The notes under the pieces were generated by a model that ran no database searches, was not told the origin of the DNA, and worked only from the letters and a program-made list of their open reading frames with translations. DNA of 17,980 nt from a bacterium (GTDB lineage Bacteria > ARS69), in the NCBI GenBank assembly GCA_025774865.1, contig JALGZO010000705.1, positions 1-17,980 of the forward strand. The letters run 5' to 3'. Positions 439 through 17,980 of the stretch are shown here, in pieces. Made by a program: the position numbers and the translations under genes. How positions within the stretch are numbered: the stretch's first letter is position 1; every line of letters begins with the position of its first letter.

Positions 439-519
439 GTCGTCCCCTCCCTTCACACGGGCCCGCAGCCGATTGGCCAGAATAGGAGAGGCCGGCCCGA
501 CGGACAAGCCTCGCGGCGG

Positions 520-1287: not shown

Positions 1288-1347
1288 CGGCGTCCTTTCG
1301 AGGAGGGCCCCGCAGGGTAATCGGGAGGCGGTCTTCCTTCAACCGGA

Positions 1348-3000: not shown

Positions 3001-3326
3001 TCCCCTTCTGGGGCCTCCGTCTCACTCGAGGACGGGGCTTTCTCGGGGGAAGGAGTGTCGCCGGGATCGGCCGGCGTCGCGGGCCCGGCGATCACGGCCA
3101 TCCGGAGCTCGAACAGCACGCTCTCCAGCAGCCCCGCCTCTTCCTCGCCGACATTCCCCGCCGTCTTCGCCTGAAGGCTCTCGACCGAATCGACCAGGCC
3201 GCGCGCCTCGGTCAGTTGGTTCTCGGCGATCAGCTGCGTCGCCATCTGGCGGAGAAACAGTACCAGTCCCATGAAGTTCATGCGGTGTCGCTCGTCCGCC
3301 GACAATCCCGACGCCTCTTCCGTCAT
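2997..3326 (-). CDS. DUF1844 family protein
   Basis: Small soluble protein of 109 residues with no signal peptide or membrane segment. The core (about 17-80) matches the DUF1844 pattern: an N-terminal helix FMGLVLFLRQMATQLI, a middle helix with LVDSVESLQAKTAGNV, and LLESVLFELRMAV at the end. It is followed by a low-complexity Pro/Ser/Glu tail (about 81-109) that looks disordered. The molecular function of the family is unknown. The gene sits 16 nt after serS and its TGA overlaps the ATG of the barrel protein, so it belongs to the same transcript. A purine-rich run (GGGGGGCAGGGA) precedes the ATG at 3324-3326. The family call rests on recognised sequence pattern only. Confidence 0.8.
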   Translation of the reverse strand: MTEEASGLSADERHRMNFMGLVLFLRQMATQLIAENQLTEARGLVDSVESLQAKTAGNVGEEEAGLLESVLFELRMAVIAGPATPADPGDTPSPEKAPSSSETEAPEGE

Positions 3327-3342
3327 TCCCTGCCCCCCATCT

Positions 3343-4650
3343 CTACTTTTCTACTTTGGCGGCCGGCCGCCCGGCCCGACCCGGTTCGATGGCCTCCACG
3401 CCCAGGTAAGGCCTGAGCACGTCCGGCACCGTGATCGAGCCGTCTTCGCGCTGATAGTGCTCCAGGAGCGCGATGAACGTGCGGGGCGTGGCGAGCCCCG
3501 ACCCGTTGAGCGTATGGACGAGCTGCGGCTTCGCCCCGTCCTCCGAGCGGTAGCGGATCTTCATGCGCCGGGCCTGGAAGTCGCGGAAGTTCGAACAGGA
3601 ACTCACCTCGAGCCATTTCTCCTGCCCCGGCGCCCACACTTCGAGATCGAACTTCTTCGCCTGGGTGAATCCCATGTCGCCGGCGCACATGAGCAATACG
3701 CGGTAGCGGAGCCCGAGCTGCCGGAGCAGATTCTCCGCGTCCTCGACGAGCTCTTCGAGCTCCTCGTCCGACGTGTCCGGCTCCACGAACTTGACGAGCT
3801 CGACCTTGTTGAACTGGTGCACGCGGTTCAGTCCCCGCACGTCGCGGCCGTGCGACCCCGCCTCCCGCCGGAAATTCGGCGTGTAGGCCGCGTAGCGGAC
3901 GGGCAGGTCGGCGGCCGAGAAGATCTCGTCTCGGTGCAGGTTCGTGACGGGAACCTCGGCCGTCGGTACGAGGAACATCTCGTCGCGTGTGATCACGTAC
4001 ATCTGGTCTTCTTTGTCGGGAATCTGGCCCGTGCCGAACGCGCTGTCCTCGTTCACGAGAATGGGCGGCAGCACCTCGCGGTAACGCCCGTTCGCGGTGT
4101 GCACGTCGAGAAACCAGTTGAGGAGCGAGCGCTCCAGTCGCGCGCCGAGCCCTTTGTAAACCGGAAAGCCCGAGCCCGTGACCTTGACGCCGCGCTCGAA
4201 GTCGAGGATGTCGAGCGCCTCGGCGAGCTCCCAGTGGGGCTTCGGGTCGAAGTCGAGCTCCGGCACCGCTCCCCCCTCCCGGACGACCTGATTGTCCTCC
4301 GGGGTCCGACCCGCGGGAACGTCCGGGTCGGGGAGGTTCGGCACGGTGAGGAGAAGCCCCTGCAGAGCTTCCTCCACCCGACCGCTCTCCTCCTCGCGCT
4401 CCTTGACCCGCTCGCCGAGCTCCCGCACCTCCGCCTGCGCGGTGGCCGGGTCCTCGCCCGCCTGGATCCTGGCGCCGATCTCCTTCGACCGGACGTTTCG
4501 CTCCTGGCGGAGCTTCTCGATCTCGACCAGGAGCTCGCGGCGCTGCACGTCGAGGCGGAGGATCTCCTGGAGGTCGACCTCGATGCCCTTCGCCTCGCAG
4601 CCCAGACGGACTTTCTCCGTCGCGTCGCGGATCACTCGAATGTCCAGCAT
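3343..4650 (-). CDS. serS: Serine--tRNA ligase
   Basis: Class II aminoacyl-tRNA synthetase that charges tRNA-Ser (and tRNA-Sec where present) with serine in the cytoplasm. The 435 residues show an N-terminal coiled-coil tRNA-binding arm (about 27-100, rich in E/K/R/L). The catalytic core has TAEVP at 230-234, motif 2 with NFRREAGSHGRD at 259-270, and motif 3 with NGSGLATPRT at 382-391 leading to VPDVLRPYLG. All hallmark residues are present. I start at the ATG at 4648-4650 (MLDIRVIRD), which has GAGGA seven bases upstream and matches the family N-terminus. A further in-frame ATG at 4719 would add 23 residues unlike the family. The DUF1844 gene follows after 16 nt. The selenocysteine pathway, if present, would also rely on this enzyme. 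Confidence 0.97.
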   Translation of the reverse strand: MLDIRVIRDATEKVRLGCEAKGIEVDLQEILRLDVQRRELLVEIEKLRQERNVRSKEIGARIQAGEDPATAQAEVRELGERVKEREEESGRVEEALQGLLLTVPNLPDPDVPAGRTPEDNQVVREGGAVPELDFDPKPHWELAEALDILDFERGVKVTGSGFPVYKGLGARLERSLLNWFLDVHTANGRYREVLPPILVNEDSAFGTGQIPDKEDQMYVITRDEMFLVPTAEVPVTNLHRDEIFSAADLPVRYAAYTPNFRREAGSHGRDVRGLNRVHQFNKVELVKFVEPDTSDEELEELVEDAENLLRQLGLRYRVLLMCAGDMGFTQAKKFDLEVWAPGQEKWLEVSSCSNFRDFQARRMKIRYRSEDGAKPQLVHTLNGSGLATPRTFIALLEHYQREDGSITVPDVLRPYLGVEAIEPGRAGRPAAKVEK

Positions 4651-4692
4651 GCCGGATTCCTCGCGGAGGCGAGCGCGGCGGCTCGAGGGCGG

Positions 4693-4721
4693 AGAGTACC
4701 GCGGATCCCGGCAACCCACAA
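4693..4721 (-). promoter_or_regulatory. Possible sigma-70 promoter for the serS operon
   Basis: In the 150-nt gap between the transporter gene and serS, the minus strand carries TTGTGG (4716-4721) and TACTCT (4693-4698) separated by 17 nt. This would place the transcription start about 35 nt before the serS ATG. Each hexamer matches the consensus at only three of six positions, so this is a weak candidate that rests mainly on spacing and position. Confidence 0.22.
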
Positions 4722-4800
4722 CGCGAGGGGGCGATGCGCGGGACGGAAGCCGGCGGAGGCGACCCGGCGGGCGGCGCCTCGGCGTCGTGCCGCCGCTCCG

Positions 4801-6066
4801 TCAGCCGCCGAGTACTTTGTCGCGGATCTGGACGAGGGCCAGATAGCAGAAGAGGAGAACGCAGACGACGAGCCCACCGTTCGCCAGCGGACCGTTTCGC
4901 AGCGGGCCGAGCTCCCGGCGGTTGTTCATCACGAGGAGCGTGACCGCGAGGAACGGCATGAACAGCGCGCCGACCGCGGCGTACGCCACGACGATCCAGA
5001 CCGGCTTGCCGATCGCCAGGATCGCCATCGGCGGGATCGTGAGAAAGGCGAGATAGCCGCGGTAGAGCGGCCCGCGGACGGCCACCGTCCGGCGTCGCCG
5101 GTCGTCGGGCTCGCTCCGGAGCATGCCGACGAAATCCGCGAACAAGTACGGTACGCCCTGCCACACCCCGAGGATGGACGTGGCGACGGCCGCCCAGAAC
5201 CCGACGAGAAAGAAGAGTTCCCCGGGACGGCCGAAGCGTTCGCCCAGGATGCCCGCCATCTGAAGGACTCCTTCGGAACCGGTCACCCGCACGCCGGCCG
5301 GATGCAACACCGTGCCGGCCAAGAGCACGAGCCCGATTCCGAAGATTCCGGTGAGCACGTATCCGGTTCCCAGGTCGAATCGCACGGGGCGCATCCACTC
5401 CGCCCCCGACCATTCCTTTTCGCGCATCCAGTAGTTGTAGGAGAGGAGGGTGAGCGTGCCCCCGATGCCGCCGATGACGCCCAGCAGGAGCAGCGTGCCG
5501 CCGGCGGGAACGCGCGGCAGGACGAGGCCCTTCAGCGTCTCGGCCAGGGGCGGCGCCTGGATCGAGGCCGTTCCCACGATCGCGACGAACATGACCCCGA
5601 TCGCCCACTTCATCGCCCGTTCGAACGCGCCGTAGCTTTCGAACCAGACGAACGCGAACGCGGCGAGCGCATGGCAGATTCCCCAGGTCGTGACCGACAG
5701 CTGAGGCACGAGCGCGTGAGCCGCGAGACCGCACGCCGCCATGAGCGCCGCCGCGACGATCAGCGTCCAGAGAACGAGATAGATGAGAAACCAGATCCGG
5801 ACCGCGGGACCGAAGTGCCGAACCCATCCCTCGAGCACGGTCGTGCGGGTCGCGAGCTGCCAGCGGGCGACACCTTCTGCGAGCGTGTACTTCAGAACGG
5901 CGCCGAGCACGGCCGTCCACAGGACGGGAAGCCCGTACGTCGCACCGGCCTTCGCCGCCGCCACCATGTCCCCGGCGCCGACGCCCGTCGCCGCCACGAC
6001 GAGACCCGGCCCGACGATCCGGAGCGCCCCTTTGAGTCCGGCCGGGGGCGGGCCCTGGGAAGCCAT
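4801..6066 (-). CDS. Divergent Nramp-superfamily membrane transporter
   Basis: Integral inner-membrane protein of 421 residues with about 11 hydrophobic segments and the Nramp opening GPGLVVAATGVGAGD (19-33). Nramp proteins are LeuT-fold, usually proton-coupled, Mn2+/Fe2+ importers. Here the metal-binding TM1 motif DPGN is replaced by GAGD (30-33). The TM6 region (about 200-214, GGIGGTLTLLSYNYW) lacks the Met-Pro-His metal site. It therefore belongs to a divergent branch and its substrate should not be assumed to be manganese or iron. The ATG at 6064-6066 has AGGA seven bases upstream. The gene is divergent from the DNA glycosylase gene, with 59 nt between start codons, and lies 150 nt upstream of serS. 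The superfamily call is good; the substrate is unknown. Confidence 0.85.
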   Translation of the reverse strand: MASQGPPPAGLKGALRIVGPGLVVAATGVGAGDMVAAAKAGATYGLPVLWTAVLGAVLKYTLAEGVARWQLATRTTVLEGWVRHFGPAVRIWFLIYLVLWTLIVAAALMAACGLAAHALVPQLSVTTWGICHALAAFAFVWFESYGAFERAMKWAIGVMFVAIVGTASIQAPPLAETLKGLVLPRVPAGGTLLLLGVIGGIGGTLTLLSYNYWMREKEWSGAEWMRPVRFDLGTGYVLTGIFGIGLVLLAGTVLHPAGVRVTGSEGVLQMAGILGERFGRPGELFFLVGFWAAVATSILGVWQGVPYLFADFVGMLRSEPDDRRRRTVAVRGPLYRGYLAFLTIPPMAILAIGKPVWIVVAYAAVGALFMPFLAVTLLVMNNRRELGPLRNGPLANGGLVVCVLLFCYLALVQIRDKVLGG

Positions 6067-6125
6067 GGTGGTATCCTAGCCGGCGATTTTCGCGCCCGCA
6101 ATCATGGGCCCGTAGGGAGGCCGCG

Positions 6126-7010
6126 ATGCCGGAGCTGCCCGAGCTCGAGATCTATCGTGAGCGACTAGTGGAGGCCCTCGTCGGTCGGACGGTCGAGGCG
6201 GCGGCGGCCCCCAGTCCGTTCGTTCTGCGAACGGCGGACCCGCCGCTCTCCGATCTGGAGGGCCGCGCCGTGGAGGGCGTCGAGCGCTGCGGCAAGCACT
6301 TGCTGGTGGAGCTCGGCGGACCGCGGTTCGTCGCGATCCACATGATGCTCGCGGGGCGATTGCACCTGAAGGCAGTGGAAGGTTACAAGCCCCACCGCAA
6401 ACGCACTCTCCTGACGCTCGCCTTCGACGACGGCACGCTCCTCGAGATGACGGAAGCTGGCACGAAGAAGCGGGCGTCGGTGCATATGCTCGCGCGGCGC
6501 GAAGATCTGGGGCGGCTCGACCGCGGCATCGATCCGTTCGACCCGGAGCTGACCCCGGAGCGGCTCGGCGCGCTCCTCGGGGAGAGGAACCGTCAGCTCA
6601 AAGGAGCGCTCCGCGCGACGGATCTCCTCGCCGGCATCGGCAATGCGTACTCGGACGAGATTCTCTTCGCCGCGCGCCTCTCCCCCGTGCGTCTGACGCG
6701 GAAGCTCGGCGACGACGAGATCGTCGTGCTCCACGCCGCCATTCGCGACACGCTCGGGAGCTGGATCGACCGAGTGCGCGAGCGCTGTCCGAAAGGGCTT
6801 CCCGTCAAGCAGGACCTCTGGCGTCGGGAGATGGCGGTCCACGGGAAGACCGGCGCGCCCTGCCCGACGTGCGGAGGCGCGGTGGCGCACATCTCGCTCA
6901 AGGACTCCGAGACGAACTACTGTCCCCGGTGCCAGAACGAGGGTCGGCTCCTCGCCGATCGCCGGCTCTCGAAGTTCGGAATCCGCCGCCCCCCGCGCCC
7001 CCGAGAGTGA
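6126..7010 (+). CDS. mutM: Fpg/Nei-family DNA glycosylase (formamidopyrimidine-DNA glycosylase-like)
   Basis: Base-excision repair glycosylase/AP lyase acting on oxidised bases. The 294-residue protein begins MPELPELE with the catalytic Pro2 (N-terminal after Met removal) and Glu3. Lys57 lies in RCGKHLL, and the helix-two-turn-helix region contains GIGNAYSDEILF (170-181). A C-terminal zinc finger uses C246, C249, C266 and C269. The finger reads SETNYCPRCQ, and the Arg that usually precedes the second Cys pair and contacts DNA in Fpg is Ser/Glu here. This points to a divergent subclade whose lesion preference (8-oxoG or other) cannot be read from sequence. AGGGAGG precedes the ATG by about six bases. 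fabI follows on the same strand after 76 nt. Confidence 0.88.
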   Translation: MPELPELEIYRERLVEALVGRTVEAAAAPSPFVLRTADPPLSDLEGRAVEGVERCGKHLLVELGGPRFVAIHMMLAGRLHLKAVEGYKPHRKRTLLTLAFDDGTLLEMTEAGTKKRASVHMLARREDLGRLDRGIDPFDPELTPERLGALLGERNRQLKGALRATDLLAGIGNAYSDEILFAARLSPVRLTRKLGDDEIVVLHAAIRDTLGSWIDRVRERCPKGLPVKQDLWRREMAVHGKTGAPCPTCGGAVAHISLKDSETNYCPRCQNEGRLLADRRLSKFGIRRPPRPRE

Positions 7011-7086
7011 GGCTTGCGCCCGGCTCGCATCCCTGCGACCCTCCGGCGAGCGGCTGGCGGCCACGGCCGCCCGGGAGGCAGCCCCC

Positions 7087-7905
7087 ATGGCGGACGGACC
7101 GAGCGAGGCGACGGACGTGATGACCGAGATCGAGGGCGCAGGGCTCCTCGCCGGCAAGAAGGGGCTGGTCGTCGGGGTCGCGAACGACCGATCGATCGCC
7201 TGGGGGATCGCCCAGCGCGCCGCCGCGGCGGGAGCCAAGCTCGCGTTCACCTACCAGGGCGAATTACTCGAACGGCGCGTCAGGCCGCTCGCCGAAAAGG
7301 CGCAGTCCGACGTCCTCGTGCCCATGGATGTCACGGACGAGGCGCAAGTGGACGCCGCGTTCGGACAGGTCGAGCGGGACCTCGGCGGGCTCGACTTCCT
7401 CGTGCACTCCGTCGCCTGGGCCGACCGTGCCGATCTCGCCGGCCGCACCGTCGACACGTCGCGGGGAGGCTTTCTGAAGGCCCTCGAGATCAGCGCCTAC
7501 TCGCTCCTCCTGCTGGCGCGCAAGGGCGAAGCTCTCATGACGAACGGCGGGAGCATAGTCGCGCTCACGTACTACGGGTCCGTCAAGGTCGTCCCCAATT
7601 ACAACGTGATGGGAATCGCGAAGGCCGCGCTGGAGGCTGCCGTCCGATACCTCGCGATCGACCTCGGTCCGAAGAACATTCGCGTGAACGCGCTCTCCGC
7701 CGGTCCGATCAAGACGCTCGCCGCGTCCGGAATTTCCGGAATGCGCACCATGCTCGCGGACGCCGCGGAGCGAGCGCCGCTGAAACGCAACGTCGACATC
7801 GACGACGTGGGCGCCGCCGGCCTCTACCTTCTGTCGTCGTTGTCGAAGGGCGTGACGGGCGAAATCCACTATGTGGACGCGGGATTCAACGTCACGGCGA
7901 TGTGA
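7087..7905 (+). CDS. fabI: Enoyl-[acyl-carrier-protein] reductase (NADH) FabI
   Basis: Short-chain dehydrogenase that performs the last reduction of each fatty-acid elongation cycle in the cytoplasm. The 272 residues contain the FabI-type nucleotide-binding motif VGVANDRSIAWGIA (29-42). The catalytic TYYGSVKVVPNYNVMGIAK (161-179) has Y162 and the Y172-x6-K179 pair, and the C-terminal end is YVDAGFNVTAM. The ATG at 7087 has GGGAGG eight to nine bases upstream. A later ATG (Met12) lacks a comparable site. The first 18 or so residues form a slightly long N-terminal extension. It follows the glycosylase gene by 76 nt and converges on the phosphatase gene with 4 nt between stop codons. All catalytic residues are intact. 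Confidence 0.95.
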   Translation: MADGPSEATDVMTEIEGAGLLAGKKGLVVGVANDRSIAWGIAQRAAAAGAKLAFTYQGELLERRVRPLAEKAQSDVLVPMDVTDEAQVDAAFGQVERDLGGLDFLVHSVAWADRADLAGRTVDTSRGGFLKALEISAYSLLLLARKGEALMTNGGSIVALTYYGSVKVVPNYNVMGIAKAALEAAVRYLAIDLGPKNIRVNALSAGPIKTLAASGISGMRTMLADAAERAPLKRNVDIDDVGAAGLYLLSSLSKGVTGEIHYVDAGFNVTAM

Positions 7906-7909
7906 TCGA

Positions 7910-9616
7910 TCACTCCACCCGCATCGTGAGCAGGGTCAGATCGTCCTGCTGCGGCCCGAGGTCCGTGTGCCGCTCGACGGCGGTCAGCACTTCTTCCAGA
8001 AGCTCCGTCCCGCAGGCCGTCGACGCCCGCACCATTCCGCGCAGCCTCTCCTCCCCGAACTCGCCGGCGGAGCCCTCCGCCTCCGTGATCCCGTCGGTGT
8101 GGAGGAACACCCGGCTGCCCGCCGGCACGCGAATCTGACGAACGTTCCAGGTCGAGTCGAACGCGGGTGACAGGAGAAGCCCGGTCTGCGTGATCTCGAT
8201 CGCGCGTCCCTGCGGCGTGACAACGAGCCCCGAGGGGTGTCCCGCGTTCACGTACTCGAGCGTGCCGGAGGCGGGACGGTACCGTGCACAGATCGCCGTG
8301 ATGAACAGCGACGCTTCGAAATAGCGGATCCGCCGGGAGATCCGTCGGATCACCGAGCGCGGCGACGGGTTGCCGCCCTGCTGGTCGTGGAACGCGGATT
8401 TGACGACGGCGGTGAGCATCGCGGCCTCCGCCCCGTGTCCGGAAACGTCGGCGATGAGAAACGTGACGTCGCCGGTCGCGTCCACGTGGACGTCCACGAA
8501 ATCACCGCCGAGCTCGTCCCACGGCTTGATCACGAACGCCAGCGACGCGCGGTCCGTGCGCGTTTCCGTCGCCGGCAGAAGGCTCTGCTGAAAGTCACGA
8601 GCCTTGGCCAACCGGAGGCGCATCCCCTCGAGCACTCTGAGGTTCTCCACCGCGACGGCGGTATGCGGCAGAAAGCCCTTCACGAGCTCCGTTTCCCACG
8701 CCCCGAACGTGCCGGGGTGAGTGGCGGCGATCTTGAGCACGCCGAGCACCGTGTCCTCGCTGACGAGCGGCGCGCAGAGGATCGCTTGTTCGCGACGATC
8801 CTCGTCCGAGCGGTTGTAGTCGAGCGCTGCGGCCAGCTCCGTGACATCGCGGCCCTCCCAGTCCTTCCAGGTCTCGCCGTCGCGATCGAAGCCCATGACC
8901 GCGCCGGACCGCAAGAGCGATCGCGCCGCTGTACCGATCGCGAGCTCCTGCCCGATGCGTCGACTGCGCCCTTTCGTCCACACGAGGCGCTCCGCGACGA
9001 TCTCCAGAGCGGCCGCCGCGTCGCCGAGGACGTTCTCGTCGTACGTCAGGAACGCCGCGGAGTGGTCGTACTCCGTCAGCGTCTCGAGACCGTGCAGAAT
9101 CTGATAGAAGAGGTCCTTCGGACTCAACCGACGGATCACCTTGCGGTCGATCTTCGACCGGACCTCGAGATAGCGAAGGCGGTCGATCCGCGCCCCGACT
9201 CGGGACGTCGTCTTCGCGACCTTCTTCACGACCTTGACATCCGCGGACCGCAGCCCGGCGCCGGGGTCGCGCATGACGAGGACGCCCCACCGTCGCCCGC
9301 GCCGGGCCACGGGCACGTAGAGGCGCTCAGCCGACGTCGCAGGGTGGATCCCGGCCAGGTACTCTTCGAGAGTCCGATTCTCGCCCTCGTCCGGCGGCGA
9401 CGGGAACCAGCGCCGGGTCTCCCGCGCGCCCCGAGAGCCCAGCATCACGAGTCGAACGTCGGTCCCTTCGAAGAGCTCCCCGAGTCCGCGCACGACCACC
9501 TTCAGGATCTTCTCGAAGTCGTGGACTTCGTCCTGCAGCGCTCCGATCCGCGACAAGAGGCGCAGCACGGTGAGCTCGCGATCAGGCGATTCCACGGAAA
9601 GGCTCTCCTGAGTCAC
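7910..9616 (-). CDS. GAF-domain SpoIIE-type serine phosphatase (RsbU-like)
   Basis: Cytoplasmic PPM-type phosphatase that probably acts on a phosphorylated anti-sigma-factor antagonist or similar regulator. The 568 residues contain two GAF-like sensory regions (about 30-150 and 165-330). A short linker helix ending in FQQSLLP (342-348) leads to the SpoIIE catalytic domain (about 355-568). The metal-binding Asp residues are visible: D372 (GGDF), D390 (ADVSGHG), D508 (HTDGITEA) and D558 (QQDDLTLL). No membrane segment was seen, so the signal is probably cytoplasmic. The start is a GTG (9614-9616) with GAGGA about six bases upstream. It lies 30 nt downstream of a DinB-like gene on the same strand. 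No partner STAS or kinase gene is adjacent, so the target is unknown. Confidence 0.92.
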   Translation of the reverse strand: MTQESLSVESPDRELTVLRLLSRIGALQDEVHDFEKILKVVVRGLGELFEGTDVRLVMLGSRGARETRRWFPSPPDEGENRTLEEYLAGIHPATSAERLYVPVARRGRRWGVLVMRDPGAGLRSADVKVVKKVAKTTSRVGARIDRLRYLEVRSKIDRKVIRRLSPKDLFYQILHGLETLTEYDHSAAFLTYDENVLGDAAAALEIVAERLVWTKGRSRRIGQELAIGTAARSLLRSGAVMGFDRDGETWKDWEGRDVTELAAALDYNRSDEDRREQAILCAPLVSEDTVLGVLKIAATHPGTFGAWETELVKGFLPHTAVAVENLRVLEGMRLRLAKARDFQQSLLPATETRTDRASLAFVIKPWDELGGDFVDVHVDATGDVTFLIADVSGHGAEAAMLTAVVKSAFHDQQGGNPSPRSVIRRISRRIRYFEASLFITAICARYRPASGTLEYVNAGHPSGLVVTPQGRAIEITQTGLLLSPAFDSTWNVRQIRVPAGSRVFLHTDGITEAEGSAGEFGEERLRGMVRASTACGTELLEEVLTAVERHTDLGPQQDDLTLLTMRVE

Positions 9617-9646
9617 GTTCGATCCTCGCGTTTCCGCACGGAGCCG

Positions 9647-10105
9647 CTACGTTCCGAGCTCTCCGTCGAGCCAGCGGTGGAGCTGCCGGATGTGCCGCCC
9701 CGGGTGACAAGTGGCGTGCTCCATCATCTGCTCGCCGTCGTACTCCTGGTTCCAGCGCGTCACGAAACGTCCGTTCTCGAGCGCTTCGTCGGTGACGTCC
9801 GCGAGCGCTTCCCTCGTGAACCGAACGACGTCCAGGAGCGCGGCGATCCATGTCTCGGGGTCGTCGATGGGCTCCGGCTCCGGGAACTTCTTCTCGGGAA
9901 CGACCCCGCCGCAGTTCTCGGCGACGTACTTGACGTGCCCGTACCCGGCCAGCACGACGTGTCGGAGAATCGCGCGAACGCTGCCCTCTTCGCCGGGAAC
10001 GGCTTCGTCGTAGAGGTCACGCGGGAGCTCGCGCACGAACTCCCCGAATTCCAGGAACGCCCTCTCGAGCTCGTCGACGAGGGCTCGCCGGGCGGCATGG
10101 GTCAT
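9647..10105 (-). CDS. DinB-like (putative metal-binding) protein
   Basis: Small helical protein of 152 residues resembling the DinB/YfiT four-helix-bundle superfamily, whose members often bind a metal through three His and act as thiol-dependent transferases or are uncharacterised. Visible candidates are H49 in ILRHVV and the HxxxH pair H134/H138 in CHPGRHIRQL, which matches the family's HxxxHxxQ end. The ATG at 10103-10105 has GGGGGAG about seven bases upstream. It is the first gene of a two-gene minus-strand unit with the GAF/SpoIIE phosphatase, and it is divergent from the molybdenum hydroxylase gene. Substrate and role are unknown. The assignment rests on size, helical pattern and His spacing. 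Confidence 0.72.
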   Translation of the reverse strand: MTHAARRALVDELERAFLEFGEFVRELPRDLYDEAVPGEEGSVRAILRHVVLAGYGHVKYVAENCGGVVPEKKFPEPEPIDDPETWIAALLDVVRFTREALADVTDEALENGRFVTRWNQEYDGEQMMEHATCHPGRHIRQLHRWLDGELGT

Positions 10106-10222: not shown

Positions 10223-10261
10223 TGGTCAGATTCGGCGGCAAGCGGAGGCGATTGCTGACCA
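10223..10261 (+). promoter_or_regulatory. Inverted repeat flanking the hydroxylase ribosome-binding site
   Basis: The arms TGGTCAG (10223-10229) and CTGACCA (10255-10261) are perfect 7-bp complements. They enclose the GGAGG at 10244-10248 and end on the A of the ATG start codon. If formed in mRNA, the hairpin would hide the start codon. The GGAGG-to-ATG spacing is long (12 nt), so an alternative CTG start at 10255 cannot be excluded. Confidence 0.28.
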
Positions 10262-12909
10262 TGGCGATCCGGTTCACGTTGAACGGCGAGGCTCGGGAAG
10301 CGGACTTTCCGCCCGGTGAGTCGCTCCTGGAGGTCCTGCGGGTCGGTTGCGGCGTCACCTCGCCGAAGGACGGCTGCCAGCCGCAGGGCCAGTGCGGTTG
10401 CTGCCTCGTCCTCGTCGACGGGCTGCCGAAGATGAGTTGCGTGGTCCCGGCGGAGAAAGCCGACGGCAAGGAGATCGTCACGCTCGAAGGGATTCCCGAC
10501 GAAGAGCGGGAGCTGATCGCGCGGGCCTTCGTCGCCGCGGCGGGGCTCCAGTGCGGCTTCTGCATCCCGGGGATTGCCCTGCGCGCGAAGTCTCTGCTCG
10601 ACAAGAACGCGGCGCCGAGTCGAGCCGAGATCGACAAGGCCCTCCACGGACACCTCTGCCGCTGCACCGGCTACGCCAAGATCGTCGACGCGATCGAGCT
10701 TCTGGCCGCAGCGAAGCGCGGCGAGGCCGATCCGCAACCCGAACTGGCGGGCCGCGTCGGTGATCGGCTCGCCAGGGTGGCGGGACGCGAGAACACGCTC
10801 GGGGACCAGCCGTACGTCGACGACCTCGACTTCCCGGGTATGCTGCACGGTGCTGTCGTTCTTTCGGAGCAAGCGCGGGCCGGCGTGAAGAAGATCGACA
10901 CGTCGGCCGCCGCGGCACTGCCCGGGGTAGCGGCGGTCGCGACCGCCACCGACGTACCGGGCGAACGCTGGTACGGACTCATCCTGAACGATTGGCCGGG
11001 CTTCGTCGCCGAGGGTGAAGAGGTCCGCTGCGTCGGCGACGTGTTGGCGGCAGTCGCGGCGGTGGACGAGCGAACGGCGCGCGAGGCCGCGGCGCTGGTG
11101 CGCGTGGTGTACGAACCGCTCCCGCCGGTGCTCGATCCGGTCGACGCGATCCGCGGTCGCGCCCCTCGCGTCAATCCGAAGCACGAGAACCTGCTGTCGC
11201 GAACGGTCGTGACGCGAGGCAACGCGGATGCGGCGCTGGCGGAGTCCGCTCACGTCGTCGAGGGCACCTGGAAAACGCAGCGGGTCGAGCATCTGTACCT
11301 CGAGCCGGAGAGCTGCGTGGTCCGACCGCTCGACGACGGCCGCCTCCACCTCTACTCCCAGGGGCAGGGCGTCTTCGACGATCGGCGGCAGGTCGCCGCG
11401 TTCCTCGGAATCCCAGAGGACGACATCTTCGTCGAGCTGGTACCGAACGGCGGCGCCTTCGGCGGCAAGGAGGACATGTCCGTCCAGGCCCAGACGGCGC
11501 TCTTGTCGAAGATGACCGGCCAGCCCGTGAAGCTCGCACTCACGCGCGAGGAGTCGATCCGGATTCACCCGAAGCGCCACCCGATCACCATGGAGCTCGA
11601 GGTCGGATGCGACGAAGAGGGGCAGCTGACGGCGTTGAGGGCGCGGATGGTCGGCGACAGCGGCGCGTACGCGTCGGTCGGGATGAAGGTGCTCGAACGC
11701 GCCGCGGGTCACGCGTGCGGACCGTTCAAGGTGCCGAACGTGGACATCGAGTCGATCGCCGCCTACACCAACAATCCGCCGTGCGGGGCAATGCGCGGCT
11801 TCGGCGCGAATCAGGCCCACTTCGCACTCGACGGCGCGCTCGATCTCCTCGCCGAGAAGACCGGTCTCGACGGCTGGGAGATCCGGTGGCGGAACGCGGT
11901 CGAGGTAGGTGACGTCTTCACGACGGGACAGATCCTCGAGAAGTCGGTCGGCGCGAAGAAGACTCTGGAAGCGGTCAAGGACCTCTACTACCGGGCGAAG
12001 GTGGAAGGGCGCGCGGTCGGCATCTCGTGTGGATTGAAGAACAGTGGCATCGGCAACGGCGCGGCCGAGTGGGGCAAGGCGCGGCTCGTCGTCGAGAAAG
12101 ACGGGACGGTTTCCCTCTACAACGGCTACACGGAGATGGGCCAGGGTCTCAACACGGTGCTCGTCCAGTTTGCGGTGGAGGTCACCGGACTGCCGGCGTC
12201 CGTCTTCCGGCCGAAGATCGACTCGACGTTCGCGCTCGCCTGCGGCCAGACGACGGGGTCGCGCGCGACGCTGTTCGGCGGGCGGGCCGTATCGAGCGCG
12301 GCCGAGAAGCTGCGCGCGGAGCTCGACGCCGGCAGGACGCTCGCGGATCTCACCGGCAAGGTGTTCGCCGCCGACGTCGTCATCGACGACACCACCGCGC
12401 CGGGGGAGACGAAGAACGGCAAGATCAAGACCCACACCGCGTTCGGCTACGCCACCCAGGTGTGCATTCTGGACAAGGACGGCCGGGTGGAGAGATTCGT
12501 CGCCGCGCACGACGTGGGACGCGCCGTGAACCCCGCGCTTTGCGAGGGACAGATCGAGGGCTCGATCCACATGGGCCTCGGGTACGCGTTGACGGAAGAG
12601 CTCCCGTGCGAGAACGGGTGGCCCGTCACGTACAAGCTTCGTGACCTCGGCGTCCTGCGAGCCGTCGACATGCCGAAGCTCGAGGTGATCCTCGTGGAGG
12701 AGCCGGAGCCGGAGGGCCCGTTCGGCGCGAAGGGCGTCGGGGAGATCGGGCTCGTTCCGACCGCGGGCGCGGTGGCCGGGGCGCTCGCCGCGTTCGACGG
12801 GATCCGGCGTTACGAGCTCCCGATGAAGGACTCCCCCGCCGCCCGCGCGATGAGCGTGGGGACAATCCGAAAGCGGGAGGCGCGCGCCGCCGGAACGGCG
12901 GCCCCTTGA
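10261..12909 (+). CDS. Molybdopterin-dependent purine-type hydroxylase, fused [2Fe-2S] and molybdenum subunits (xanthine dehydrogenase family)
   Basis: The 882-residue protein joins the small and large parts of a xanthine dehydrogenase-type enzyme without a FAD domain, as in the selenium-dependent molybdenum hydroxylases found beside ssnA and ygeW. The N-terminal ferredoxin-type cluster uses C39, C45, C48 and C60; the helical cluster uses C98, C101, C133 and C135. The molybdenum domain has NGGAFGGKED (396-405), VLERA (477-481), MRGFG (511-515), MGQG (626-629) and GAKGVGEIG with the likely catalytic E828. By alignment, E404, R480, F514 and E828 correspond to Glu802, Arg880, Phe914 and Glu1261 of bovine xanthine oxidase, favouring a purine substrate. 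The ATG at 10261 begins the family N-terminus. The electron-transfer FAD partner is not in the window. The TGA overlaps the next gene's TTG. Confidence 0.9.
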   Translation: MAIRFTLNGEAREADFPPGESLLEVLRVGCGVTSPKDGCQPQGQCGCCLVLVDGLPKMSCVVPAEKADGKEIVTLEGIPDEERELIARAFVAAAGLQCGFCIPGIALRAKSLLDKNAAPSRAEIDKALHGHLCRCTGYAKIVDAIELLAAAKRGEADPQPELAGRVGDRLARVAGRENTLGDQPYVDDLDFPGMLHGAVVLSEQARAGVKKIDTSAAAALPGVAAVATATDVPGERWYGLILNDWPGFVAEGEEVRCVGDVLAAVAAVDERTAREAAALVRVVYEPLPPVLDPVDAIRGRAPRVNPKHENLLSRTVVTRGNADAALAESAHVVEGTWKTQRVEHLYLEPESCVVRPLDDGRLHLYSQGQGVFDDRRQVAAFLGIPEDDIFVELVPNGGAFGGKEDMSVQAQTALLSKMTGQPVKLALTREESIRIHPKRHPITMELEVGCDEEGQLTALRARMVGDSGAYASVGMKVLERAAGHACGPFKVPNVDIESIAAYTNNPPCGAMRGFGANQAHFALDGALDLLAEKTGLDGWEIRWRNAVEVGDVFTTGQILEKSVGAKKTLEAVKDLYYRAKVEGRAVGISCGLKNSGIGNGAAEWGKARLVVEKDGTVSLYNGYTEMGQGLNTVLVQFAVEVTGLPASVFRPKIDSTFALACGQTTGSRATLFGGRAVSSAAEKLRAELDAGRTLADLTGKVFAADVVIDDTTAPGETKNGKIKTHTAFGYATQVCILDKDGRVERFVAAHDVGRAVNPALCEGQIEGSIHMGLGYALTEELPCENGWPVTYKLRDLGVLRAVDMPKLEVILVEEPEPEGPFGAKGVGEIGLVPTAGAVAGALAAFDGIRRYELPMKDSPAARAMSVGTIRKREARAAGTAAP

Positions 12910-13985
12910 GCGACCCGGGCTGGATCAACGCGCACACACACATTTACAGCGGACTCGCGCCGCTCGGGATGCCGGATCCCGGGACGCCGCCTGAGAACTT
13001 CATCCAGATTCTGGAGCGCGTCTGGTGGCGGCTCGACCGCGCGCTGGATGAGCGGTCGTTGAGGGCCGCGGCGCGGTACTACGTCGCCGAGTCGTTGATG
13101 CTCGGCACGACGACCTTGATCGATCATCACGAGTCGCCGGAGTTCATCGAGGGCTCGCTCGACGTTCTGGCCGACGTGTGCGACGAGCTCGGGATGCGCG
13201 CGCTGCTCTGCTACGGCGCCACGGAGCGTAACGGCGGCCGCGACGAGGCGAGGCGCGGACTCGCCGAGTGCCGGCGGTTCATCGAAGCGAACCCGCGGCC
13301 GCGGGTGAGAGGCGTCGTGGCGCTGCACGCGTCGTTCACGGTGTCGGACGAGACGATCCGGGAGGCGGGCAACCTCTGCCGCGAGCTCGGCACGGTGATG
13401 CACGTGCACCTCGCGGAGGACGGCGCGGACGTGGCCGACGCAAAGGAGCGCGGCTTCCCGGGGCCGCTCCAGCGGCTCCACGAGCTCGGCGCCCTGCCGG
13501 AGGGCTCGATCCTCGCGCACGGCGTCTGGCTCGAGCCGCACGAGGTGAGGCTCGCCCGTGACCTCGGATGCTGGATCGTGCAGAACCCGCGTTCGAATCG
13601 CGGCAACCGCGTCGGCTATCCGAAGGCCCTCGGGGAGAGTGATCGCGTCGCGCTCGGGACCGACGGGTATCCGTCGGATCTGCGCGAGGAGACGGACGTG
13701 CTACGGGGCGAGGCGCAAGAGCACGGCGAGGACGAAGGGGTGGCGATGCGCAGGACCGAGACGGCGCGGCAGCTCGTGGCCGACCGGTTCGGGGCCGACG
13801 CGCTTTCGGGCGACGCGGTCGTGCGAGACGAGGCCGGCGTGCGCGAGGTCACCGTGGGCGGGCGACCCGTCGTCCGGGCGGGTGACCTCGAGACGGGCGA
13901 TCTGGCCGGGATCCGCGCGGAGGCCCGCGAGGAAGCGCGTAGGCTCAAGGAGCGCATGCTCGCGCGGAGGCGAGACGGAGGGTAG
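12906..13985 (+). CDS. ssnA: SsnA-like amidohydrolase lacking the N-terminal domain
   Basis: Metal-dependent amidohydrolase (TIM barrel) of the SsnA type, a family tied to purine/urate catabolism clusters. The likely metal ligands are visible: H10 and H12 in NAHTHIYSGL, H168 in HVHLAED (with E171), H205 in ILAHGVW and D253 in GTDGYPSD. The protein is only 359 residues, against roughly 440 in E. coli SsnA. It starts at PGWINAHTH, so the roughly 60-residue N-terminal beta-sandwich segment that normally precedes this motif is absent; a piece of the C-terminal sandwich (VREVTVGGRPVV) remains. The TTG at 12906-12908 overlaps the upstream TGA in TTGA, and no earlier start is possible without deep overlap into the hydroxylase gene. 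The substrate is unproven. Confidence 0.8.
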   Translation: MSDPGWINAHTHIYSGLAPLGMPDPGTPPENFIQILERVWWRLDRALDERSLRAAARYYVAESLMLGTTTLIDHHESPEFIEGSLDVLADVCDELGMRALLCYGATERNGGRDEARRGLAECRRFIEANPRPRVRGVVALHASFTVSDETIREAGNLCRELGTVMHVHLAEDGADVADAKERGFPGPLQRLHELGALPEGSILAHGVWLEPHEVRLARDLGCWIVQNPRSNRGNRVGYPKALGESDRVALGTDGYPSDLREETDVLRGEAQEHGEDEGVAMRRTETARQLVADRFGADALSGDAVVRDEAGVREVTVGGRPVVRAGDLETGDLAGIRAEAREEARRLKERMLARRRDGG

Positions 13986-13994
13986 GATCCCCCC

Positions 13995-15487
<1,493 letters not shown>

Positions 15488-15491
<4 letters not shown>

Positions 15492-16903
15492 GACTTCCCA
15501 CGCGGTTCGAGTGCGTCGGCTGCGGCGCGACGATCAACGACGAGACGACCCCCCCGTTCCGCTGCCCTGCGCAGAAGCGCGGCGATGACATCGATCACCT
15601 ACTCGTCCGGAATCTGAACCCTGAACACGCCACCTTCCCCCCGCCGGGAGGCGCAACCAACCCGTTTCTCGCTTACCGGGATCTGTTTCACGCACGACAC
15701 CTCGCGCGGGGACACGGGCTCGCGGACGGCACCGTGGACGAGATCATCGAGAGACTCGACGCGGCGGTCGCTGCGGTGGACGGCCGCGGCTTCCGGCGGA
15801 CCCCGTTCCCTCGCTCGGACTCCTTGTCGAACGCGCTCGGCTTCGAGAGGCCGGGCGGCGTGTCGGTGAAGGACGAGACCGGTGGCGTCGGGGGTTCGCA
15901 CAAGGCGCGTCACCTCTTCGGGATTCTCGTGTACCTGGAGGTCACGCGCCGCCTCGGGATCGGCCCGGGCGTCGATGCGCCGCTCGCGATCGCGAGCTGC
16001 GGGAACGCCGCACTCGCGGCCGCGATCGTGGCCCGCGCGGCGAAACGGCCGCTCGAGGTGTTCGTGCCGGTGTGGGCGAACGGCCGCATTGTCGCCCGGC
16101 TCCGCGAGCTCGGCGCGCGTGTCACCGACTGCCCCCGCCGAGGCGACGAGGCCGGCGATCCGAGCGTGCTCCGCTTTCGGGAAGCCGTGAACAGCGGGGC
16201 CATTCCGTTCACGTGCCAGGGATCGGAGAACGGGCTCACGATCGAGGGGGGCGAAACGCTCGGCTGGGAGATGGCGTCGGCGTTCGCCCGGGAGGGGCGG
16301 GTGCCCGATCGCCTGTTCGTACAGGTGGGGGGCGGCGCGCTCGCGACCGCGGTGATCGCGGGATTGCGGGAGGCCCGGGATCTCGGCGCGATCGAGACGC
16401 TGCCGCGCGTGCACACGGTGCAAACGGAAGGCGGCTGGCCGCTCAAGCGCGCGTACGATCGCGTGGCGGCTCGGATGCTGATCCGCCTCGGCGGCGACGC
16501 CCTGAATCCGCCGCCGGGAAGTCCCGACGCCGTGGAACAGTTGCGCGACGCCTTCCCGTCCGACCGAGTCCAGAGCGAGCTGGAGTACGCGTCAACGCAT
16601 CGGTCGGAGTTCATGTGGCCGTGGGAACCGGAGCCGCACAGCCTGGCCGACGGCATTCTGGACGACGAGACCTACGACTGGCTCGCGGTCGTCCGCGGCA
16701 TGATCGAGACCGGCGGCGGCCCGGTCGTCGTGAGCGAGGATCTGATCAAGGAAGCGAACGACCTGGCCCAGAACGCTTCGCCGAACGGCGTCAGCCATAC
16801 CGGTTCGGCGGGGCTGGCCGGCCTCGTGAAGCTGGTCCGGGACGGCGAGGTGAAGCCATCCGAGTCGGTCGTCGTGCTCCTGACGGGGCTGCGCCGGGTC
16901 TAG
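15488..16903 (+). CDS. Threonine-synthase-like PLP-dependent lyase with N-terminal Cys motif
   Basis: Second fold-type II PLP enzyme of the operon, 471 residues. The N-terminus has C9, C12 and C26 (CVGCG then RCP), like the zinc-ribbon start of some threonine synthases. The probable PLP lysine is K139 in GGSHKARH, the substrate loop is SCGNAALA (170-177), and the phosphate loop is VGGGAL (280-285). SHTGSAGL near 437-444 follows the family pattern close to the C-terminus. It differs from YgeX (about 400 residues, no Cys motif). The TTG at 15488-15490 overlaps the upstream TGA as TTGA, and the codons after it lead straight into the Cys motif; no ATG or GTG lies in frame before that motif. It is likely translated by coupling to the preceding PLP gene. 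An ammonia-lyase role is plausible but unproven. Confidence 0.8.
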
Positions 16904-16960
16904 CTGCTTCCGCGTATCTAGTCCCGTCGCTTGGGATGGAGGCGCCCAGCGCAACAAACG

Positions 16961-16984
16961 GCGACGCCGGAAGAGGCGTCGCTA
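16961..16984 (-). terminator. Stem-loop terminator after the kinase remnant
   Basis: Perfect 8-bp arms GCGACGCC (16961-16968) and GGCGTCGC (16975-16982) enclose a 6-nt loop. Read on the minus strand, the hairpin starts within the last codon (TAG, 16982-16984) of the kinase remnant and is followed by a short T-rich stretch (GTTTGTTG). It therefore looks like the old rho-independent terminator of that gene. It may also help stop plus-strand reading from the PLP operon, although no T run follows on that strand. Confidence 0.5.
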
Positions 16985-17335
16985 ATGAAAGGCTTCGGTG
17001 ACCTTCACGGGCGCTTCTCGGCCGAAGCTCGGGTGTGCTGCCCCGCGCGCTGGCTTGTGCGTATTCCACCACCGCTCCGCCCGCACCTGATCCCAGTGGT
17101 CAGCATCCACCGCCGCGTCCAGGCGACGGGACAGCTCCGCCGCTCACGTCGGCCGGTCAGTCGGCTTCTTCTCGAGACACTCCAGGACGAGTGCATCCAG
17201 CCGTTGAGGAACCGCGATTTCACTCGTGCTCGAGGGCGGCGTCGGTGTGCCTCATTGACGTGAGCGAGGATGGTCGCCATGGAGGACTCCCGCTCAAACG
17301 CGTCTGCGGCCGTGTCCACCGTGTAGGACGAATGA
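16982..17335 (-). pseudogene. Remnant of a Hanks-type Ser/Thr protein kinase C-terminus
   Basis: Minus-strand translation in pieces gives the end of a bacterial Ser/Thr kinase domain. One frame holds AFERESSMATILAHVNEA (from about 17311 down to 17248), the usual segment after the activation loop. The next frame continues TPTPPSSTSEIAVPQRLDAL, then VLECLEKKPTDRP, the kinase subdomain XI pattern with its conserved Arg. After an in-frame TGA at 17144-17146, 53 further codons run AAELSRRLDAAVDADHW and QVRAERWWNTHKP to the TAG at 16982-16984. Joining the pieces requires restoring one base near 17249 and reading through one stop. The N-lobe, catalytic loop and DFG segment are not recognisable upstream, so the gene is truncated and non-functional. 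The upper boundary is uncertain. Confidence 0.75.
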
Positions 17336-17521
17336 TCCACGCAGTGCCTCTCCGCCTGGAGGGTCCAAGGGCGCATCGGAGGGTGTCAAGCTGACATTGG
17401 CTGCGCGAGCGACGAGCCTCTCAAACCGATGACGCTCGATGACTCGGGCGTTCCCAGGGGTGGGCGTCGACCGTCTCTCGTAGGAAGAACTCGGGGGCCT
17501 CTCAGGCGGCGGCCCGCGCGG
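17336..17521. other. Non-coding stretch with no recognised content
   Basis: About 190 bases between the kinase remnant and the YgeW stop codon. A minus-strand reading frame gives a short run (RVIERHRFERLVARAANV) that ends at an internal stop and matches nothing I recognise. SDAPLD further along weakly recalls the kinase SDxxSD segment, so part of this may be more decayed kinase sequence. No promoter, repeat or RNA structure stands out. Confidence 0.35.
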
Positions 17522-17980
17522 TCACCCGACCCAACCGTCCAAGAGCGCGGCGGCAGGCTCGCGGAATCGCGTCAGCAGAATCATGGCCGCGACGATGAAC
17601 GGCTTGTGCCCCGCCTCCCGGTAGGTGTCCAGGCGATACCGTTCGAACACGCTCGCCGCCACCTCGCCCTGCTCGCAGCTGACGCCGGAAATGTCCGCCG
17701 GCAAGCAGTGCATGTAGAGCGCCCGACCGTCCTTCGTCCGCGCCATGCGCTCCTCGGTGCACTCCCAGTCCGCGAACTTCGCGTTGTGTGCGAGCGCTTC
17801 CTTCTCCAGCCGGGCAAGCTCGTCCGTCTTGCCCGCGCCGCGCAGCTCGGTGCGCTTCTTCATCGCCCAGAGCGGCGCCCAGCTCTTGGGATAGACGATG
17901 TCCGCGCCGTCGAACGCCTCGTCCATCGAGTCGGTGATCGCGAACGAGCCGCCACTTGCGGTCGCGTGACGTCGCGCCGC
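17522..17980 (-). CDS. ygeW: YgeW-type knotted carbamoyltransferase-like protein, C-terminal part (runs off right edge)
   Basis: C-terminal 152 residues of an aspartate/ornithine carbamoyltransferase-superfamily protein of the YgeW type; the start lies beyond base 17980. The frame is open to the edge (GGSFAITDSMDEAFDGADI), so the internal Met at 17926 is not the true start. Diagnostic segments are DIVYPKSWAP, FADWECTEERM and MHCLPADISGVSCEQGEV; the HCLP element corresponds to the carbamoyl-phosphate site of the superfamily. YgeW genes occur with ssnA, ygfK, hyuA, ygeX/ygeY and selenium-dependent molybdenum hydroxylase genes in purine/urate catabolism clusters. Its exact reaction is not established. 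Here it is transcribed toward the hydroxylase operon, separated from it by the kinase remnant. Confidence 0.88.
   Translation of the reverse strand, partial: AARRHATASGGSFAITDSMDEAFDGADIVYPKSWAPLWAMKKRTELRGAGKTDELARLEKEALAHNAKFADWECTEERMARTKDGRALYMHCLPADISGVSCEQGEVAASVFERYRLDTYREAGHKPFIVAAMILLTRFREPAAALLDGWVG

What the first reader, a model, noticed from the sequence alone, without database searches (positions are those of the whole stretch)
10261..17980. Variant ygeW-ssnA-xdh cluster with two PLP lyases in place of YgeX
The sequence shows a fused molybdenum hydroxylase, an SsnA-like amidohydrolase and two fold-type II PLP enzymes in one operon, with YgeW nearby. Known clusters of this kind (E. 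coli ygeW-to-xdhD region, urate-degrading gut anaerobes) use YgeX, a 2,3-diaminopropionate ammonia-lyase, with YgeY, HyuA and YgfK. Neither PLP enzyme here looks like YgeX. I infer an alternative branch of purine or N-heterocycle breakdown in which two PLP enzymes act in series or on different amino-acid intermediates.
Basis: partly seen in the sequence, partly recalled or inferred. Interest (0 to 1): 0.8.

Follow-up and report, generated by a model that had tools for sequence, protein, structure and literature searches.

The report
Urate-degradation cluster with replacement lyase
An uncultured bacterium carries the gene set for breaking down uric acid without oxygen, but the usual last enzyme (YgeX) is missing from its genome and two unrelated, never-studied vitamin-B6 enzymes stand in the operon instead, an arrangement found in many soil and water bacteria that the published survey, made with broad family markers, would have counted as YgeX or missed.

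Summary
The window (a whole 18-kb contig of a 4.7-Mb MAG) carries an overlapping operon: fused Fe-S/Mo hydroxylase (TIGR03311, above cut-off), a short SsnA-like amidohydrolase, a 498-aa CysK-fold PLP enzyme ("PLP1") and a threonine-synthase-fold PLP enzyme ("PLP2"). The C-terminal part of ygeW faces it, cut by the contig end. The missing genes lie on other contigs of the same genome (ygeW N-terminus, ygeY, a short ygfK; hyuA elsewhere). In the 100% complete sister genome, xdh-ssnA-PLP1-PLP2 faces ygeW-ygeY-ygfK. YgeX is absent from all held genomes of this family. PLP1 has 110+ invariant residues across at least nine phyla. In 396 Acidobacteriota genomes all 8 with the short SsnA have PLP1 next to it. 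Two divergent PLP1 clades also sit in urate clusters (one with UacT), mostly without PLP2 or YgeX. Best reading: a variant of the recently solved reductive urate pathway in which PLP1 does YgeX's job (2,3-diaminopropionate to pyruvate), PLP2 being an accessory lyase or racemase. Against strict replacement: PLP1 also occurs outside urate clusters (arginase-, CoA-transferase- and carbamoylase-linked) and sometimes beside YgeX. Substrates are inferred, not shown.

The parts
10261..12909 (+). Fused [2Fe-2S]/molybdopterin hydroxylase, 882 aa, no FAD domain (XdhAC/XdhD type; proposed urate-to-yanthine reductase)
   Evidence: TIGR03311 935.7 bits > 830.45; Pfam Fer2, Fer2_2, Ald_Xan_dh_C, MoCoBD_1/2; 63-86% identical relatives directly upstream of ssnA-PLP1 in other phyla
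12906..13985 (+). Short SsnA-like amidohydrolase, 359 aa, start overlaps the hydroxylase stop (proposed ring-opening aminohydrolase)
   Evidence: NF005540 262 bits, TIGR03314 240 bits, both below cut-off; HxH, H, H and D ligands aligned with E. coli SsnA; an SsnA gene lies within 250 bp of PLP1 in 24 of 112 loci
13995..15491 (+). PLP1: 498-aa fold-type II PLP enzyme with a CysK-like core and N- and C-terminal extensions; proposed replacement of YgeX
   Evidence: PF00291; no YgeX match; 39-row alignment with more than 110 invariant columns, K112 and STGN loop; AF2 pLDDT 93.1, best PDB matches beta-cyanoalanine synthase/CysK, Z 33-35
15488..16903 (+). PLP2: 471-aa threonine-synthase-like PLP enzyme with N-terminal Cys motif, TTG start overlapping the PLP1 stop; proposed accessory lyase or racemase
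   Evidence: PF00291 114.7 bits; K139 and S-C171-G-N invariant; AF2 pLDDT 92.0, threonine synthase Z 37.6
17522..17980 (-). C-terminal part of ygeW (knotted carbamoyltransferase), truncated by the contig end; N-terminal part on G000:C134
   Evidence: NF005538 223.8 bits over model 240-384; N-terminal model positions 7-229 at G000:C134:2420-3094, next to ygeY

Best explanation
The locus is one half of a reductive urate (purine) degradation cluster of a variant kind. Proposed route, by homology with the pathway worked out in E. coli, C. difficile and C. sporogenes: the FAD-less hydroxylase reduces urate to yanthine; a short YgfK without the NAD(P)H/FAD half reduces that further; the SsnA-like enzyme and HyuA open the two rings to 2,3-diureidopropionate; YgeW and YgeY remove the two carbamoyl groups; and PLP1, a CysK-fold beta-eliminating lyase, takes YgeX's place and splits 2,3-diaminopropionate to pyruvate and ammonia through 2-aminoacrylate. 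PLP2 is a partner of the same fold type acting on the other enantiomer or converting it (lyase or racemase). Shown here: gene content, order, genome-wide absence of YgeX, conserved linkage, intact catalytic lysines, folds. Inferred: every substrate and product, and the division of labour between PLP1 and PLP2.
For: Own genome: YgeY (575.7 bits, over cut-off), YgeW N-terminus, short YgfK and HyuA (542 bits, over cut-off) present; YgeX absent at E <= 1e-20. Contigs C154-C134-C709 are linked through split ygfK and ygeW genes. Sister G001 (100% complete): xdh-ssnA-PLP1-PLP2 facing ygeW-ygeY-ygfK in one stretch, no YgeX. Acidobacteriota, 396 genomes: 8 of 8 with the short SsnA have close PLP1 (10 such genomes), all adjacent; hypergeometric 3e-15, 1e-13 without the seed, not corrected for kinship. 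Divergent PLP1 (35-50% identical) in urate clusters: ygfK-uacT-hyuA-ygeW-PLP1-ssnA-yqeB (L202), hyuA-ssnA-PLP1-ygeY-ygeW (L197), xdh-ygeY-ygfK-ygeW-carbamate kinase-ssnA-PLP1 (L209). Of 38 loci with two or more urate genes only 3 hold a YgeX relative. Ancalomicrobiaceae genomes G024 and G042 carry the hydroxylase-ssnA-ygfK cluster plus PLP1-PLP2 and no YgeX. Fold and active-site loops fit beta-elimination or replacement. Pathway: PMC12507026, PMC12990295.
Against: No activity has been measured. PLP1 also occurs away from urate genes: with an arginase-family enzyme, with CoA-transferase A/B and an LLM oxidoreductase, or alone. It coexists with YgeX in L016, L204 and L208, and in Pleomorphomonas a YgeX-like gene sits in the urate cluster while PLP1-PLP2 lies elsewhere. 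PLP1 lacks the Asp120 of YgeX (STGN in place of TDGN), so it cannot use both enantiomers by the YgeX mechanism. SsnA and YgfK here are both shortened, so their substrates may have shifted. On two rhizobial plasmids the neighbours of PLP1 (TauE/SafE; in one also RidA and gamma-glutamyltransferase) suggest other beta-substituted alanines.
Confidence: 0.55

Rival explanations
1. The two enzymes act before full decarbamoylation: PLP1 eliminates the 3-ureido group of albizziin (3-ureidoalanine) directly, so that 2,3-diaminopropionate is never formed, or the two act in series on the mono-ureido intermediates.
For: PLP1 core is close to enzymes handling O- and N-substituted alanines, including O-ureido-L-serine synthase (Z 33.3); linkage with N-carbamoyl hydrolases (M20 and/or nitrilase type) in L028, L061, L072, L074 and L079.
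Against: YgeW and YgeY, which together remove both carbamoyl groups, are kept in the window genome, in G001 and in many clusters, so 2,3-diaminopropionate should be formed. Urea-type leaving groups are poor.
Confidence: 0.12
2. PLP1 is a general beta-lyase for beta-substituted alanines (diaminopropionate, cysteine S-conjugates, cysteate and the like) that was recruited into urate clusters as one of several uses; PLP2 does the specific step.
For: Many contexts: arginase family, CoA-transferase pair, CuyA-like lyase, plasmid loci with TauE/SafE, RidA and gamma-glutamyltransferase; only 1 of 12 PLP1 genomes (the seed) among 385 Alphaproteobacteria has the short SsnA.
Against: The two most divergent PLP1 clades in the tree are mainly urate-linked (7 of 9 and 4 of 5 rows), while non-urate contexts are nested inside the largest clade (midpoint root only). 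Very high conservation (70% mean column identity) argues against loose specificity.
Confidence: 0.2
3. The PLP pair is assimilatory: it moves the three-carbon unit or nitrogen of diaminopropionate into cysteine, threonine-like or other amino acids by beta-replacement (CysK- and ThrC-like chemistry) instead of lyase breakdown.
For: PLP1 has a cysteine-synthase-like core and PLP2 a threonine-synthase-like fold.
Against: PLP1 replaces the CysK GIGAGF stretch with GIGDKH, kept in all three clades, and scores far below the CysK cut-off (69.6 against 350.95); the cluster is otherwise catabolic.
Confidence: 0.08
4. The cluster acts on another N-heterocycle (a different oxopurine or hydantoin) and not on urate.
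For: SsnA and YgfK are shortened relatives below the curated cut-offs; TIGR03311 hydroxylases are annotated as xanthine dehydrogenases.
Against: YgeW and YgeY orthologues accompany it, and one PLP1 cluster holds the urate transporter UacT at 55% identity (L202).
Confidence: 0.05

Closest known systems
E. coli K-12 ygeW-ygeX-ygeY-hyuA-yqeA / ygfK-ssnA-ygfM-xdhD reductive urate pathway (PMC12507026; L092)
   Same: Hydroxylase, SsnA-like, YgfK relative, HyuA, YgeW and YgeY all present in the window genome
   Different: No YgeX; PLP1-PLP2 in the operon instead; hydroxylase and YgfK lack FAD/NAD(P)H parts; hyuA in another locus; two facing operons
C. difficile / C. sporogenes type (UacX, UacY, XdhAC; PMC12507026, PMC12990295)
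   Same: FAD-less fused hydroxylase and a reductase without the FAD domain, suggesting a ferredoxin-like donor
   Different: Keeps YgeW instead of UacY, a shortened YgfK instead of UacX, and lacks YgeX, which C. difficile has
YgeX, 2,3-diaminopropionate ammonia-lyase (TIGR03528)
   Same: Fold-type II PLP enzyme; same place at the end of the gene set
   Different: PLP1 and PLP2 do not match the YgeX models; STGN and SCGN replace TDGN with Asp120
CysK / beta-cyanoalanine synthase / O-ureido-L-serine synthase
   Same: Core fold of PLP1 (Z 31-35)
   Different: About 40 extra N-terminal and 75 extra C-terminal residues; GIGDKH instead of GIGAGF; 17-29% identity
Threonine synthase / threonine deaminase / serine racemase
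   Same: Fold of PLP2 (threonine synthase Z 37.6)
   Different: Invariant Cys171 where serine racemase has its re-face base Ser84; 18-26% identity; far below family cut-offs

Membership tests
Reductive urate-degradation gene cluster | XdhD/XdhAC-type molybdenum hydroxylase | tested here: met
   TIGR03311 935.7 bits against 830.45
Reductive urate-degradation gene cluster | SsnA of family TIGR03314/IPR017700 | tested here: not met
   239.6 bits against 455.5; catalytic ligands kept, N-terminal part missing: SsnA-like, not SsnA by the curated rule
Reductive urate-degradation gene cluster | YgfK or UacX reductase | tested here: inconclusive
   Short relative on C154/C134 (N-terminal model match only, 290 bits; sister 365 bits, cut-off 835); the sister's copy has no Pyr_redox domain
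Reductive urate-degradation gene cluster | YgeW knotted carbamoyltransferase | tested here: met
   Two parts over contigs C134 and C709 (350.6 and 217.8 bits); intact sister copy 580.8 bits over the 500 cut-off
Reductive urate-degradation gene cluster | YgeY hydrolase | tested here: met
   G000:C134 575.7 bits over 321.5
Reductive urate-degradation gene cluster | HyuA hydantoinase | tested here: met
   G000:C417 542.4 bits over 393.25, not in the cluster itself
Reductive urate-degradation gene cluster | YgeX ammonia-lyase | tested here: not met
   Absent from G000-G004 at E <= 1e-20
Reductive urate-degradation gene cluster | Conversion of urate to pyruvate and ammonia | not testable with these tools
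   Needs growth or enzyme assays
YgeX (diaminopropionate ammonia-lyase) | Match to TIGR03528/NF006058/TIGR01747 | tested here: not met
   No match at E <= 1e-3 for PLP1 or PLP2
YgeX (diaminopropionate ammonia-lyase) | Asp120 in the TDGNHG loop | tested here: not met
   T141 in the PLP1 loop (PSTGN in 111 of 111) and C171 in PLP2 (SCGN in 54 of 54); D in all 7 YgeX relatives
Cysteine synthase (CysK/CysM) | Equivalog HMM cut-off | tested here: not met
   69.6 bits against 350.95; fold shared
Threonine synthase | Equivalog HMM cut-off | tested here: not met
   77.9 bits against 303; fold shared
Selenium-dependent molybdenum hydroxylase system | selD and yqeB/yqeC in the genome | not tested

The most novel reading that the evidence does not exclude
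The single two-base enzyme YgeX (Lys77 plus Asp120) has been replaced by two unrelated one-job enzymes of the same fold type: PLP1, a new CysK-like lyase family for diaminopropionate (or ureidoalanine), and PLP2, whose invariant Cys171 lies where serine racemase has its re-face base and YgeX its Asp120, handling or racemising the D form that a D-specific HyuA route produces.
Probability: 0.25. Interest if true: 0.75.

Novelty: new variant of a known kind. Interest (0 to 1): 0.62.

Why it matters
The reductive urate pathway was solved only in 2025 and is discussed mainly as a gut trait. This variant puts it in soil, marine and groundwater phyla (Acidobacteriota, Myxococcota, Planctomycetota, Gemmatimonadota, Eisenbacteria, Actinomycetota and others) and points to a conserved, uncharacterised PLP family as its last step. 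The published survey (PMC12507026) took SsnA as IPR017700 and YgeX as any PF00291 protein near it; the short SsnA falls below that family's cut-off and PLP1/PLP2 would be read as YgeX, so the variant is hidden there. It is directly testable: one complementation in an E. coli ygeX mutant decides the main claim, and the chirality of the pathway, an open question in PMC12990295, can be read from the enantiomer preference of PLP1 and PLP2.

Tried and rejected
A normal ygeX just off the contig: excluded. Filing PLP1 as CysK or PLP2 as threonine synthase: far below cut-offs. PLP1 as a dead partner of PLP2: rejected, the Schiff-base lysine and cofactor loops are conserved in both. PLP1 as an obligate purine enzyme: rejected by the Alphaproteobacteria sample. 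Exact end overlaps between contigs C709, C134 and C154: none found; the join rests on split genes, a 51-residue overlap with two differences at the ygfK break, and synteny with G001/G004. Plasmid search: two rhizobial plasmids only, annotated 'pyridoxal-phosphate dependent enzyme'. No paper on these two PLP families was found in the open library.
Full report
What is in the window. The window is the whole of contig C709 of a 785-contig, 4.7-Mb MAG (92.65% complete, 8.3% contamination). From 10261 to 16903 four genes run on the + strand with overlapping or nearly touching ends: hydroxylase 10261-12909, SsnA-like 12906-13985, PLP1 13995-15491, PLP2 15488-16903. About 620 bp on, facing them, is the C-terminal part of ygeW (17522-17980), cut by the contig end. 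The hydroxylase passes the TIGR03311 cut-off. The amidohydrolase is closest to SsnA but far below the curated cut-offs and lacks the N-terminal ~57 residues; aligned with E. coli SsnA it keeps the HxH motif, the two further histidines and the aspartate. PLP1 and PLP2 are both PF00291 proteins with no match to the YgeX models.

The rest of the cluster. The same genome holds ygeY (C134:1200-2381), the N-terminal part of ygeW (C134:2420-3094) and the C-terminal part of a short ygfK at the start of C134, whose N-terminal part ends contig C154. The contig ends share no identical DNA. The order is inferred from the two split genes, from a 51-residue overlap with two differences at the ygfK break, and from the sister genomes. 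In G001 (same family, 100% complete) the order is xdh-ssnA-PLP1-PLP2 facing ygeW-ygeY-ygfK-acetate-CoA ligase in one stretch. In G004 ygfK-ygeY-ygeW follow a separate three-subunit xanthine dehydrogenase set. HyuA is present but in other loci (G000:C417, G001:C9). YgeX is absent from G000 to G004 at E <= 1e-20.

Shortened reductases. The YgfK relatives here (about 650 aa) match only the first ~400-450 positions of the 1012-position model and have 4Fe-4S motifs but not the Pyr_redox_2 part of E. coli YgfK. The hydroxylase has no FAD subunit next to it. Both features resemble the C. difficile enzymes, for which ferredoxin was proposed as the donor (PMC12507026). That is an inference here.

How conserved the PLP genes are. 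A scan of genome contigs gave 446 stretches encoding PLP1 relatives; the best 80 are 57-69% identical and come from Acidobacteriota, Actinomycetota, Bdellovibrionota, Chloroflexota, Eisenbacteria, Gemmatimonadota, Myxococcota, Planctomycetota and Pseudomonadota, besides unnamed bacteria. In 39 of them more than 110 columns are invariant, K112 and the STGN loop included. PLP2 follows PLP1 within 300 bp on the same strand in 59 of 112 loci (a few loci are the same genome fetched twice), and its K139 and S-C-G-N loop are invariant.

Linkage to urate genes. By tblastn annotation within 12 kb, 38 of 112 loci hold two or more of Xdh, SsnA, YgfK, YgeW, YgeY, carbamate kinase and HyuA; only three of these (L016, L204, L208) also hold a YgeX relative; SsnA lies within 250 bp of PLP1 in 24. 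In an even draw of 396 Acidobacteriota genomes, 8 have a close short SsnA (>= 330 bits) and 10 a close PLP1 (>= 640 bits). All 8 overlap, and in all 8 the two genes are neighbours on one contig (hypergeometric 3e-15, without the seed genome 1e-13; kinship is not corrected for). Two more distant PLP1 clades in the same phylum are also in urate clusters: L202 is ygfK-uacT-hyuA-ygeW-PLP1-ssnA-yqeB, L197 hyuA-ssnA-PLP1-ygeY-ygeW, L209 xdh-ygeY-ygfK-ygeW-carbamate kinase-ssnA-PLP1. These lack PLP2 next to PLP1 and mostly lack YgeX. In the tree the distant clades are mainly urate-linked, and close PLP2 linkage is confined to the large clade (midpoint root, quick method).

Where the link fails. In 385 Alphaproteobacteria only 12 have PLP1, and of these only the seed genome has the short SsnA. 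The others place PLP1 beside an arginase-family enzyme, a CoA-transferase pair with an LLM oxidoreductase, or nothing recognised. Gammaproteobacterial and Kiloniellaceae loci place it with a TRAP transporter, a YgeX relative, an M20 carbamoylase and a nitrilase-type carbamoylase. In Pleomorphomonas the urate cluster (YgeX-like, two carbamoylases, ygfK, xdh, ssnA) is separate from PLP1-PLP2, whereas Ancalomicrobiaceae have the same cluster without YgeX, and PLP1-PLP2. So PLP1 is not tied to urate alone, and where both exist it is not simply a substitute.

Mechanism. The PLP1 core superposes on beta-cyanoalanine synthase, CysK, H2S-producing lyases, SbnA and O-ureido-L-serine synthase (Z 31-35, about 290-320 residues, rmsd 2-3), PLP2 on threonine synthase and more weakly on threonine deaminase and serine racemase (Z 37.6 to 30). 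E. coli YgeX has Lys77 and Asp120 as potential catalytic residues (PMC4000059); Asp120 is the D of TDGNHG. Serine racemase has its re-face base Ser84 (PMC6424897) in what I take, from general knowledge of the fold, to be the corresponding SxGN loop. PLP1 has T141 there, PLP2 C171, both invariant. PLP1 also swaps the GIGAGF of CysK for GIGDKH in all three clades. I infer that PLP1 eliminates the beta-amino group of 2,3-diaminopropionate from one enantiomer and that PLP2 deals with the other, by elimination or racemisation. The presence of both YgeW and YgeY argues that diaminopropionate is formed. None of this has been assayed.

Verdict. The interpretation (an alternative branch of purine breakdown with a different terminal lyase) is well supported at the level of the pathway, moderately for PLP1 as the functional replacement of YgeX, and weakly for what PLP2 does.

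Noticed in passing
G000:C154/C134 (L120, L119), L088 14497-16443: Short YgfK variant (~650 aa) lacking the FAD/NAD(P)H half of E. coli YgfK, common in PLP1 genomes; its electron donor is unknown.
   Followed up: partly
L067, L069, L075, L080, L211, L214, L215, L217: PLP1 followed by a family I CoA-transferase pair and an LLM-class oxidoreductase in Burkholderiales and Alphaproteobacteria; no known pathway fits.
   Followed up: no
L038, L048, L210, L219: PLP1 directly downstream of an arginase/agmatinase-family ureohydrolase (27-97 bp); a guanidino- or ureido-alanine substrate would fit.
   Followed up: no
L226, L227 (Rhizobium NXC24 and Bosea vaviloviae plasmids): PLP1 relatives on conjugative plasmids near TauE/SafE exporters, M20 hydrolases and, in Bosea, RidA, a TPP enzyme and gamma-glutamyltransferase, suggesting beta-lyase chemistry on sulfur compounds.
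   Followed up: partly
L055 1011-2039: A CuyA/D-cysteine-desulfhydrase-like PLP lyase takes the place next to PLP1 in one Rhodospirillales locus.
   Followed up: no
L121 5306-8969: In sister genome G004 a complete three-subunit xanthine dehydrogenase set directly precedes ygfK-ygeY-ygeW, as if feeding urate into the reductive pathway.
   Followed up: no
window 1348-3000 (-): 550-aa protein with acidic thrombospondin type 3 repeats, probably an outer-membrane protein; unrelated to the cluster.
   Followed up: no
window 1-10105: Ordinary housekeeping flank: alanine racemase-like (cut), MazG, seryl-tRNA synthetase-like, Nramp transporter, Fpg/Nei glycosylase, FabI-like reductase, GAF-SpoIIE phosphatase, DinB-family protein.
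   Followed up: no
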